Source of the DNA: an uncultured Bacteroidota bacterium
GTDB taxonomy: Bacteria; Bacteroidota; Bacteroidia; NS11-12g; UBA9320
DNA length: 64,000 nt
NCBI GenBank assembly: GCA_937124965.1
Contig: CAKZLB010000013.1
Location: 62,001-126,000, forward strand
Direction: 5' to 3'
Of this stretch, positions 3,401 through 5,295 are shown piece by piece. Both the position numbers and the translations under genes were made by a program. The notes under the pieces were generated by a model. The model was not told where the DNA came from and did not search any database. It saw only the letters and a list, made by a program, of their open reading frames with translations. How positions within the stretch are numbered: position 1 is the first letter of the stretch; each line of letters begins with the position of its first letter.

Positions 3401-4069
3401 TTACTCAGGTTTTAGAACTTTCAAATCCTGAAAATCGGAATTGTCAATCAGAATATCTGAACACGCTTCTGGGTCATTTTCTTGAATGTAGATAGTTGAA
3501 GCTCTGTGATAGCGATTGAGGTATTTTTCTTTGGTTGATTCGTAGCCTCCAAGAACTAGTTTATCTCTTTCAATTCCTCTTTTCTGTGCAATTTCAAAAC
3601 TCGTTTTAAGGTAGATTTTCAAATCCCAATGTGGCCTATAAACATTTTTAAATAAGTATGCTCCATCTGTTAAAATCACTGTATCACGCTGAAGGAATAT
3701 TGGTTCCAGTGATAATTTTTCATCTGAGTCTAAATCATGGATGGCAGGGACGTAATGGGGGCAATCACTTTGCGACGCCTCTAACACGTGTTCAACAAAA
3801 GCATTTTCATTATATGCATCGTGATAATAGCCGAGTGCAGAATCCCGCCCTTTTGCATATCGAACAGCTTTGGGATTATGAAAACCATCAATAGTTACAT
3901 GAATCGCATTAACATATTGAGACTGAAGATAGTCGCAAAGTTTTTCTGTAAGAGTTGTTTTACCTGTACCTTCAATACCATTTACAGCGACCAAAACTGG
4001 TTTGGCTTTTTGGACTTGAATGTGTTTTATTTTCTGGCGAAGGAATTCAAATAATTCTAGCTGGGTCAT
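3401..4069 (-). CDS. Uridine kinase-like P-loop kinase
   Basis: This 222-residue protein has a Walker A motif GIEGTGKTTL near residue 33, followed by a TIDGFHNPKAVRY segment characteristic of the phosphoribulokinase/uridine kinase superfamily, where the D-x-F-H region binds substrate. Further hallmarks are a DLDSDEK strand-loop and the lid-like REIAQKRGIERDK region. It is likely to phosphorylate a nucleoside or a similar small hydroxyl substrate in the cytoplasm. The true substrate cannot be read from the sequence. It is a single gene: about 100 bases separate it from the upstream start of the 2862-3299 gene and a long gene-free stretch lies on its 5' side. Confidence 0.75.
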   Translation of the reverse strand: MTQLELFEFLRQKIKHIQVQKAKPVLVAVNGIEGTGKTTLTEKLCDYLQSQYVNAIHVTIDGFHNPKAVRYAKGRDSALGYYHDAYNENAFVEHVLEASQSDCPHYVPAIHDLDSDEKLSLEPIFLQRDTVILTDGAYLFKNVYRPHWDLKIYLKTSFEIAQKRGIERDKLVLGGYESTKEKYLNRYHRASTIYIQENDPEACSDILIDNSDFQDLKVLKPE

Positions 4070-4339: not shown

Positions 4340-5200
4340 TAATAAAAGAAAAGAAATAATCTTTTTTTCGGATTTGCATCTTCCCCAGATTGGAATTCTG
4401 GTGATTTCTCTTTCCGCCAATATTACCTCATTGGAGATGAGGTTTCGGAGATTATTCCTTTAATTAACTTAAGGCAGGGCGATAGCCCTGTTTGTGTTTA
4501 GAAGCTTTTTTCGACTTCTAAACAAAAGTACGCTGCAGTGTAGTGCCTTTTACCTTACACTTTTCCACAGATAATACCATTTCCGCATAGTTAAAGACTT
4601 ATACCTGTTGACAACAATAAGTTGTCATTTGCACAAAAATCAAAGCGCATTTCACGAATTACTTACGACTTGACACGTACAGGTTATTCGTACTTTCATT
4701 AATCATTAACAATATTAATCGGCTCTTAAATCTCATCAACTTGTTATATTTAAGTTTACCTCATATTTAGGATTCAACACTAATCTTTAAATGCGAAGCG
4801 AGCGCCGGAAAGACAGAAATGCGGGCCGGCGGTTGGGTGAATGTTGAATGCTGTAGAAAATCCATAAAAGAGTTTACGTCCTTTTATGAGATTTTGTTAG
4901 CATTCAGCAGAGAGCGGAGATAGCATATTTCTGTCAAGACGTTTTTCTTTAGTTTTTGCGTTTCAAAAAGTAAAATCGGGTTTGGGCTGATAAGCCCATA
5001 TTTGACTTTTTGCGCTATTGTTTATAGATCATAGATCTATTGAGCAGCAAGATTGCTAACGCGATCTCGAAAAGTCGAGGAGTTGATTAACGTAGCATTC
5101 TGCTGCGCAGCCTAGATTCCAAAATCAAGCTAAAACTGATGCAAGCATCGACTTATCTTTCTTTTTGGAACCACGTTGAACCCATCGACATTGATCCCTT
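4340..5200. ncRNA. Hairpin-rich gene-free region; candidate large structured RNA (strand unknown)
   Basis: No ORF with coding character covers this stretch, yet it contains a dense series of perfect inverted repeats. They are 4385-4389/4397-4401, 4426-4431/4437-4442, 4475-4480/4485-4490 (GATA loop), 4496-4504/4515-4523 (9 bp), 4537-4542/4556-4561, 4609-4615/4621-4627, 4654-4659/4686-4691, 4803-4808/4826-4831, 4812-4820/4927-4935 (9 bp), 4843-4852/4899-4908 (10 bp with one G-T), 4863-4870/4881-4888, 4964-4971/5005-5012 enclosing 4983-4988/4993-4998 (GATA loop), 5024-5030/5034-5040, and 5044-5049/5101-5106 enclosing 5066-5070/5075-5079. I recognise no tmRNA, RNase P, SRP or 6S signature. A weak -7-like TAATTTCG lies at 4326-4333 on the plus strand. 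It could be one large RNA or several small ones. Confidence 0.5.
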
Positions 5201-5211
5201 TGATCATCTAG

Positions 5212-5295
5212 TACCCAGAACAAGATTCGAACTTGCACGACCGTAAGGTCACCACCCCCTCAAGGTGGCGTGTCTACCAATTTCACCACCTGGGT
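5212..5295 (-). tRNA. tRNA-Leu (anticodon GAG)
   Basis: On the minus strand an 84-base tRNA folds fully: acceptor ACCCAGG pairs with TCTGGGT, the D arm is GTG/CAC, and the anticodon stem CCACC/GGTGG encloses loop TTGAGGG with anticodon GAG. A long class II variable arm and a T arm GCAAG-TTCGAAT-CTTGT follow. The discriminator is A and no CCA is encoded. A long variable arm and GAG together identify leucine. A promoter matching the Bacteroidota consensus lies just upstream (5316-5345). Confidence 0.95.

What the first reader, a model, noticed from the sequence alone, without database searches (positions are those of the whole stretch)
4340..5210. Dense series of perfect hairpins with no gene: possible large structured RNA next to tRNA-Leu
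About 870 bases lack coding character but contain at least fourteen perfect inverted repeats of 5 to 10 bp. Many have short sensible loops (GATA twice, AAAG), and some stems are nested. I find no tmRNA, RNase P, SRP or 6S signature. Very large bacterial RNAs such as GOLLD and ROOL are known for multi-hairpin folds and some occur near tRNA genes, but I have no evidence of membership. It may also be several smaller RNAs. Strand and boundaries are not decided.
Basis: partly seen in the sequence, partly recalled or inferred. Interest (0 to 1): 0.8.

Follow-up and report, generated by a model that had tools for sequence, protein, structure and literature searches.

The report
Widespread folded repeat in Bacteroidia
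The hairpin-rich stretch beside the tRNA is not one giant RNA: it is a patchwork whose main part is one copy of an apparently undescribed 204-base repeat with a strongly conserved fold, spread through many Bacteroidia and, in one family, sitting at the joints between blocks of defence and metal-resistance genes.

Summary
The hairpins are real, but the 870 bases are a mosaic: folding excess sits in 4471-4530 and 4797-5000; other parts show none or (5001-5210, +) a weaker one. Window 4797-5000 (+) is one copy of a dispersed element: long-range stem P1, inner hairpin P2, 3' H-type pseudoknot. No Rfam match. Six similar places lie in the same genome, dozens of copies in the genus; a covariance model finds it in 52 of 395 class genomes. 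Over 49 copies 37 of 44 pairs change on both sides (covariation 0.529; shuffled 0.133; slid at most 0.084). G-U exceeds A-C 41 to 14, pointing to this strand. RT, TnpB and IS110: 0 of 5 genus genomes each. In family f35 the element is the 5' part of a 0.6-1.0 kb repeat bounded by Xer/dif arms; such repeats separate cassettes (restriction, AIPR/Z1 defence, metal efflux), and two sister species differ by a whole cassette at or near dif. Best reading: a non-autonomous mobile repeat with a selected strand-specific fold, also the end of Xer-integrated cassettes. RNA or ssDNA is undecided; the window copy is solitary, without dif.

The parts
4797..5000 (+). The element: one full-length copy of the dispersed structured repeat (covariance model R1)
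   Evidence: 205.6 bits, E 6.1e-52, the only significant match in the 64-kb window; fold z -5.2; six other places in the same genome match this part at 80-94%. It is one of the 18 copies the model was built from.
4812..4822 (+). P1 5' arm (GACAGAAATGC)
   Evidence: Pairs with 4923-4935; all 10 P1 pairs show a change on both sides somewhere among 47 distinct copies, 96.6% of cells paired
4842..4909 (+). P2 inner hairpin (arms 4842-4870 and 4881-4909)
   Evidence: Inverted repeat I1; helices 4-6: 18 of 23 pairs with changes on both sides, 90-95% of cells paired. Short forms of the genus lack P2
4923..4935 (+). P1 3' arm (GCATATTTCTGTC)
   Evidence: Partner of 4812-4822
4938..4974 (+). M3 pseudoknot: X GACG (4938-4941), T5 linker (4942-4946), stem 5' arm TTTAGTTTTTG (4948-4958), X' CGTTT (4959-4963), stem 3' arm CAAAAAGTAAA (4964-4974)
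   Evidence: X and X' covary over 28 distinct M3 modules: mean complementary run 4.5, shuffled mean 3.32, largest of 1000 shuffles 3.86; three of four helix-7 pairs change on both sides. The window copy has a G-G mismatch in the stem
4984..4997 (+). Terminal hairpin GGGCTGATAAGCCC
   Evidence: Seen in most genus copies; helix 8: 3 of 3 pairs with changes on both sides but gaps in 20-21 of 47 rows, and no clear counterpart in many other genera
5048..5150 (.). Separate unit B beside the tRNA: one copy of a unit that is a 111-bp, 4.5-copy tandem array at the orthologous tRNA-Leu(GAG) locus of G001
   Evidence: 80-82% identity, TRF period 111; not part of the element; fold not significant
4523..4623 (-). 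Separate stretch C: resembles DNA just upstream of a gene read by eye as a class II ribonucleotide reductase, in G000 and G004; holds TTTTCCACA and TACTTTTG
   Evidence: 74% over 102 nt to L008, 81% over 53 nt to L024. Gene name and the promoter reading (TAnnTTTG) are recalled, not tested
4475..4527 (.). Two simple hairpins (4475-4490 and 4492-4527), not part of the element
   Evidence: (I3) and reading; fold excess of 4471-4530; no match to 4420-4522 in 38 relatives at E 0.001

Best explanation
Window 4797-5000 is a solitary copy of a non-autonomous, dispersed (mobile) repeat family of Bacteroidia. Shown: the family is multi-copy, mostly intergenic, found in either orientation to genes, and holds one fold (P1, P2, pseudoknot M3) by compensatory change over many genera. 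Shown for family f35 (8 of its 10 hit genomes looked at): the same fold is the 5' part of a 0.6-1.0 kb repeat bounded by Xer arms; such repeats stand between gene cassettes, and one whole cassette is present or absent at or near dif between two sister species. Inferred: the folded strand is recognised by a trans-acting factor that moves or processes it; in f35 host XerCD does the integration and the repeat is the constant end of each cassette. In the window's genus the mover is unknown. Whether the folded molecule is RNA or single-stranded DNA is not settled; I give the two nearly equal odds.
For: Copies and dispersal: own genome, 7 places at 80-100% counting the window's, 16 model matches; G001 21, G002 18, G004 7, G003 1. 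Fold: 44 pairs, 15 with double changes in 18 genus copies; 49 copies of many families: 93.2% of cells paired, 37 of 44 pairs with double change, covariation 0.529 against 0.133 (0 of 500 shuffles) and 0.060-0.084 when slid. Strand: G-U 41, A-C 14 over 42 pairs. Distribution: 18 of 108 order genomes, 52 of 395 class genomes, 5 of 395 in a phylum draw. Orientation of 42 copies: same/same 13, opposite/opposite 9, convergent 7, divergent 6, one neighbour missing 7. Cassettes. Xer arms: exact 11-mer beside the element in 8 of 8 f35 loci and 1 of 34 others; cassette ends; the single G488 repeat is like G274 repeat a on the left and like repeat b plus flank to the right of dif.
Against: No excision, circle or fresh insertion was observed and no target-site duplication was established. 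In the window's genus no mobilising enzyme was found: RT, TnpB and IS110 0 of 5 each; Y1 in 2 of 5, not in copy-rich G001 and G002, and no dif-like site lies near the window copy. Homologous recombination between repeats could also shuffle f35 cassettes. The order of two G416 contigs is inferred. A3 was fitted to the model, and 12 of its 49 rows are copies the model was trained on. Both strands of the window copy fold with similar z, so the strand claim rests on the G-U/A-C count, not corrected for relatedness. 6 of 42 copies overlap mechanical ORFs.
Confidence: 0.6

Rival explanations
1. A family of trans-acting non-coding RNA genes that spreads with islands: each copy is transcribed, folds as P1-P2-pseudoknot and binds a protein or targets.
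For: Strong covariation, and letters outside the helices that vary little (around GUGAAU and AGAG.GCG); G-U over A-C 41:14. The Bacteroidota -7 word TAnnTTTG (recalled) lies within 100 nt upstream in 9 of 49 copies, above all 300 letter shuffles (mean 2.07, maximum 8), and in 11 of 42 genus copies, 8 of them at one distance (49 nt), so one 5' module may carry a promoter.
Against: 40 of 49 copies lack that word, and among the 49 its distance varies (19-82 nt) with related loci counted more than once; a T6 tract within 40 nt downstream in 2 of 49. Dozens of diverged copies per genus. No expression data seen.
Confidence: 0.32
2. A folded single-stranded DNA site (like integron attC or folded phage attP): one strand folds during replication, transfer or uptake and is used by a recombinase such as XerCD.
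For: Sits directly beside Xer arms in f35, bounding cassettes; the strand also folds with DNA parameters, z -5.9, 0 of 200 shuffles.
Against: 33 of 34 non-f35 loci lack an adjacent exact Xer arm; the fold is more elaborate than known folded sites (recalled); no enzyme shown to use it; the other strand was not folded as DNA.
Confidence: 0.33
3. Inert old repeats: REP/ERIC-like debris that only serves as homology for recombination; fold kept by past selection.
For: Many short-form and palindrome-interrupted copies; mosaic neighbourhoods.
Against: Compensatory change across distant families means selection acted widely; several genomes with one to three matches keep full folds.
Confidence: 0.15
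4. One large (~870 nt) structured RNA such as GOLLD or ROOL next to tRNA-Leu.
For: Whole-stretch z -5 to -7.6; presence of a tRNA.
Against: No Rfam match; excess confined to sub-parts; parts occur separately in other genomes.
Confidence: 0.02

Closest known systems
IMEX and pdif (dif) modules: Xer-integrated elements (CTXphi, GGI; Acinetobacter plasmid modules)
   Same: f35 cassettes are bounded by XerC/XerD-like arms and sit at a dif-like site; cargo is adaptive; no integrase was recognised by eye in the cassettes read (not searched systematically)
   Different: Cargo is defence and metal efflux, each with a 0.6-1.0 kb non-coding repeat holding the folded element. The window copy has no dif site
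REP / REPIN / BIME repeats mobilised by RAYT (Y1) transposases
   Same: Dispersed, mostly intergenic, hairpin-rich, mosaic; five divergent pairs in genus g3 (G015, G017)
   Different: 204 nt with a pseudoknot instead of 20-40 bp palindromes; no Y1 in copy-rich G001 and G002; the Y1 genes found have other palindromes beside them (by eye)
Integron attC sites and cassette arrays
   Same: A fold at a cassette joint, co-oriented copies
   Different: Larger fold, multi-gene cassettes up to ~13 kb, Xer-type arms; cargo genes run with the element in L117, L118, L119, L125 but against it in L120 and part of L121/L122; attC core motifs and IntI were not tested
Flavo-1 RNA (RF01705)
   Same: Non-coding motif of Flavobacteria, present at the start of cargo in 3 of 6 f35 loci scanned and once more
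   Different: Different sequence and place; Rfam scores it apart from the element. PMC9723704 (passage read) says its hits lie indistinctly sense or antisense to transcribed regions
STAXI motif (pseudoknots near Ssbp and XerDC genes; PMC2864571, passage read)
   Same: Pseudoknot motif near DNA-handling genes
   Different: Tandem pseudoknots in Enterobacteriales; no Rfam match here
Telomerase-type triple-helix pseudoknots (recalled)
   Same: H-type pseudoknot with U-rich linker and U-A stem; linker T and stem A lengths correlate, r 0.63 over 28 modules mostly of one genus
   Different: Triplex only inferred; some distant copies do not match in length

Membership tests
GOLLD / ROOL large RNAs | Match to the Rfam covariance model | tested here: not met
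   only tRNA reached gathering; below it only chance-level ar9 and lsy-6
REP/REPIN with RAYT | Short 20-40 bp palindromic unit | tested here: not met
   Conserved unit is ~204 nt with pseudoknot
REP/REPIN with RAYT | Y1 transposase gene in the genome | tested here: not met
   PF01797: 2 of 5 genus genomes (G000, G004), none in copy-rich G001, G002
REP/REPIN with RAYT | Inverted pairs of units | tested here: inconclusive
   Five divergent pairs in G015 and G017, not general in genus g1
IMEX / pdif module | Bounded by XerC/XerD arms (dif-like) | tested here: inconclusive
   Arm beside the element in 8 of 8 f35 loci and 1 of 34 others; not met for the window copy
IMEX / pdif module | Integration by host XerCD shown | not testable with these tools
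   Only presence/absence and a switch near dif between G488 and G274
Integron cassette | attC core sites and intI | not tested
   No attC model or IntI search was run
OMEGA RNA of TnpB | TnpB in the genome | tested here: not met
   PF07282: 0 of 5 genus genomes; IscB not searched
IS110 bridge RNA | IS110 transposase in the genome | tested here: not met
   PF02371: 0 of 5
Retroelement RNA (group II intron, SINE-like) | Reverse transcriptase in the genome | tested here: not met
   PF00078: 0 of 5
Flavo-1 RNA | Rfam RF01705 match | tested here: not met
   In L117 and L118 the Flavo-1 matches lie about 625-640 nt downstream of the end of the element, not on it

The most novel reading that the evidence does not exclude
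A class-wide, strand-folded pseudoknot element is the cis-acting core of an undescribed cassette system of Bacteroidia: cargo units (restriction-modification, AIPR/Z1 defence, metal efflux), each ending in this element and entered by Xer at dif, stack into arrays, while in other lineages, such as the window's genus, the element has broken free and spreads alone.
Probability: 0.3. Interest if true: 0.87.

Novelty: new variant of a known kind. Interest (0 to 1): 0.72.

Why it matters
It adds a structured element with strong covariation, not matched in the Rfam 15 scans made here, in at least 52 of 395 sampled genomes of the class. In one family it marks the joints where defence and metal-resistance blocks are gained or lost at what looks like the chromosome's dimer-resolution site. 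That would give Bacteroidia a modular route for swapping adaptive genes without an integrase of their own, and makes the question of what a pseudoknotted non-coding strand does in such traffic directly testable.

Tried and rejected
Single large RNA: rejected because the fold excess is local and the parts have separate relatives. RT-, TnpB- and IS110-driven mobility in the window's genus: rejected for lack of the enzymes in 5 of 5 genomes (G003 and G004 are 84-87% complete). Y1/RAYT: kept only as a weak rival. A replication origin at 4.5 kb (one DnaA-like box at 4561): the 2-kb GC-skew profile shows no sign change there and the box type is not enriched in the window, 5 matches against 13.3 expected. 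Cis-regulatory leader or 3' UTR element: no orientation bias and no common neighbour gene recognised by eye in 19 loci of other genera. Virus or plasmid origin: no match in viral contigs, plasmids or phages, by exact patterns or blastn only. The 22-nt match in G033 lies in what looks like coding DNA and was taken as chance. Phylogeny-corrected covariation (R-scape) was not available. Exact insertion ends were not established: one search showed a locus shared by G017, G019 and G015, and the flank matches of the other four genomes were not examined for an empty site.

Rows dropped or not looked at: A1 holds 18 of 21 long copies found (L006 and L007 had no recognisable end because of inserted palindromes; L021 has an insert in M3; the 5' end of L009 was set by hand). 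A3 used 41 chosen sources of those at hand, 49 matches, 47 distinct rows. One search left out two of 44 pairs. In one search two candidate places without a 5' arm were dropped and 42 kept. Of ten f35 genomes with a match, G213 and G473 were not fetched. Flavo-1 was not found in L119, L120, L121 or L124.

Papers: PMC3025954, PMC5357621, PMC9723704 and PMC2864571 by find passages only; all others by search listing. Absence from print rests on nine searches of open-licence PMC papers; most subscription journals and preprints are not covered.

Full report
What is in the stretch. 4340-5210 lies between a minus-strand ORF (3401-4069) and tRNA-Leu(GAG) (5211-5295 -); no ORF of 40 aa or more overlaps it. 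Its folding excess is real on both strands but local: 4797-5000 and 4471-4530 carry it, 4340-4470, 4531-4796, 5001-5047 and 5048-5150 show none, and 5001-5210 as a whole a weaker signal on +. Rfam finds only the tRNA at gathering scores; at E up to 5 only two chance-level matches appear.

A repeat, not a single locus. Searching the window's own genome (G000) with the 871 bases gave six further places that match about 4790-4996 at 80-94%, plus two short partial ones. In 39 genomes (G000 and 38 relatives) sequence search found it only in the same genus (G001, G002, G004, not G003); a fifth genome, G033, matched by 22 bases only and was set aside. Named hits of an exact pattern in the collection of 84,980 species genomes were 24 stretches of three MAGs titled Bacteroidetes or Bacteroidia (JAIBDD, CAJQIC, CALSTB), whose contig lengths agree with G002, G001 and G004. 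That the class is Bacteroidia is inferred from these titles. The left part of the window stretch shares only a short piece with DNA upstream of a gene in G000 and G004 that I read as class II ribonucleotide reductase. The right part (5048-5150) is one unit of a 111-bp tandem array found 4.5 times beside the same tRNA in G001. So the 870 bases are a mosaic.

The element and its fold. Aligned copies show a long-range stem P1, an inner hairpin P2 that is absent from a short form, and a 3' module M3. M3 is an H-type pseudoknot: a word X, a T5-6 linker, a stem 5' arm, X' complementary to X, and the stem 3' arm. X and X' change together (GAC/GTC, ACG/CGT, ATG/CAT, GGG/CCC, GGC/GCC, CTTGAT/ATCAAG); the mean complementary run is 4.5 against 3.32 in 1000 shuffles with a maximum of 3.86. 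RNAalifold on 18 of 21 long genus copies predicts 44 pairs, 15 with changes on both sides. A U-A.U triple helix is only a suggestion: linker and A-tract lengths correlate with r 0.63, but some distant copies do not fit.

Spread over the class. The model R1 built from those copies found the element in 18 of 108 genomes of the order, in 52 of 395 genomes of the class, 34 of 196 genera, and in 5 of 395 of a phylum-wide draw, two of them outside the class. At most 21 candidates per genome were scored and 5, so copy counts are low. The counts include genomes used to build the model: G000, G001, G002 and G004 in the order search, G000 and G001 in the class search, G000 in the phylum draw. Forty-nine copies aligned to the model (47 distinct) keep 93.2% of cells paired; 37 of 44 pairs have changes on both sides; the covariation score is 0.529 against 0.133 for shuffles (0 of 500) and 0.060-0.084 for slid partners. 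The alignment was fitted to the model and 12 rows are training copies, which favours the structure, but the slid controls and the many pair types make chance very unlikely. G-U cells outnumber A-C cells 41 to 14 over 42 pairs, which points to the strand read here as the one that folds; minimum-energy folding alone does not tell the strands apart (z -5.2 and -5.1).

Context in the window's genus. Of 42 copies, neighbours lie same/same in 13, opposite/opposite in 9, convergent in 7, divergent in 6, and one neighbour is missing in 7; 6 overlap mechanical ORFs of 90 aa or more. This is no pattern for a leader or 3' UTR element. Some copies are cut by inserted 20-25 bp palindromes. No RT, TnpB or IS110 gene is found in five genus genomes; Y1 transposases occur in two, with other palindromes beside them. 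The -7 word TAnnTTTG lies within 100 nt upstream of 9 of 49 model-aligned copies at scattered distances, which is above all 300 letter shuffles (mean 2.07, maximum 8), and of 11 of 42 genus copies, 8 of them 49 nt upstream; T6 tracts lie within 40 nt downstream of 2 of 49. So a promoter in one 5' module is possible, but none is shared by the family.

Context in family f35. In G140, G180, G244, G274 and G302 two or three copies lie on one contig in the same direction, 8-18 kb apart. Between them lie, in G180, a C5 methylase, a GHKL ATPase, Z1, DUF4420 and AIPR proteins; in G274, an AcrB-type efflux pump and an E1-E2 ATPase; in G416, a type I restriction system (HsdR, HsdM) is followed by a copy. 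Cargo genes run with the element in L117, L118, L119 and L125 and against it in L120 and part of L121/L122. Smaller units of 1.2-1.5 kb with direct copies occur in G224 and G362, which are not f35. The f35 repeat is 0.6-1.0 kb from arm to arm and the element is its 5' part. The repeats begin at TTATGTTAAATA (inverted in L122, L124 and L125, one mismatch in L119), which contains the 11-base end of E. coli dif (GGTGCGCATAATGTATATTATGTTAAAT, passage of PMC3025954). On the chromosome side the last repeat ends in TTGTCCTATAA-TTTATA-TTATGTTAAAT or a close variant, that is, a full dif-like site; several inner joints carry a 9-base centre (TGTACTGCG or similar) instead. The exact 11-mer adjoins the element in 8 of 8 f35 loci (5 direct, 3 inverted) and in 1 of 34 other loci (L112, family f33). 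Flavo-1 RNA (RF01705) lies at the start of cargo in L117, L118 and L125 of six loci scanned and once in L132, not in L119, L120, L121 or L124.

Cassette gain and loss. In G488 one contig reads MarR (by eye) - small ORF - repeat - flank gene, ending inside MarR. In G274 one contig reads MarR - small ORF - repeat a - metal cassette - repeat b - the same flank. Apart from an insert of about 50 nt, the G488 repeat is identical or nearly so to repeat a over its left part and resembles repeat b and its flank only to the right of dif, so the change lies at or near dif. In G416 a type I restriction unit adds a further repeat; there the order of two contigs is inferred. This fits Xer integration of cassettes at dif, as known for IMEX (PMC5357621, passages); recombination between repeats is not excluded. 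G488 is a draft, and I did not test whether the metal cassette lies elsewhere in it.

Reading. The safest statement is that the window holds a solitary copy of a non-autonomous structured repeat of Bacteroidia, for which I found no description, with a fold under selection. Its link with Xer-bounded cassettes is shown for one family (and an adjoining arm at one locus of a second) and not for the window. Whether the fold works as RNA or as ssDNA cannot be decided from sequence; the strand folds in both parameter sets. No match was found in viral contigs, plasmids or phages. Nine literature searches found no description of the element or of such arrays; coverage is limited to open-licence papers.

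Noticed in passing
window 5048-5150; L014 1500-1993: A unit beside tRNA-Leu(GAG) is single in the window but a 111-bp tandem array of 4.5 copies at the orthologous place in G001; the array's distal end repeats about a dozen letters of the tRNA 3' end (by eye), recalling tandem repeats beside E. coli tyrT.
   Followed up: partly
window 4523-4623 (-); L008 1501-1601; L024 1501-1552: A stretch like the upstream region of a class II ribonucleotide reductase gene (named by eye), with conserved TACTTTTG and a TTTTCCACA box, sits in the window without such a gene.
   Followed up: partly
L118 2114-2551, L124 10021-10509, L125 8889-9359, L177 3242-3679, L180 3289-3714: A recurrent small ORF of about 140-160 aa lies upstream of the repeat in f35 arrays; no Pfam match for the two tested.
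   Followed up: partly
L117 3477-3552, L118 3525-3600, L125 32-108, L132 437-512: Flavo-1 RNA lies at the start of some cargo units, as if it were the other end of the same mobile unit; it may be a DNA-level element rather than an RNA.
   Followed up: partly
L006, L007, L047, L050, L052: Small palindromes of 20-25 bp are inserted inside copies of the element, often in hairpin loops or T tracts, apparently separate mobile palindromes.
   Followed up: no
L131 14076-17515: An rve-domain transposase, an AAA/TniB-like ATPase and a resolvase lie next to genes read by eye as QatABCD (KAP NTPase and TatD by Pfam), left of a Flavo-1 copy in G274.
   Followed up: partly
L182-L186: The pseudoknot module M3 alone recurs in f35 genomes with a different conserved 5' part, a possible second family sharing the same 3' end.
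   Followed up: no
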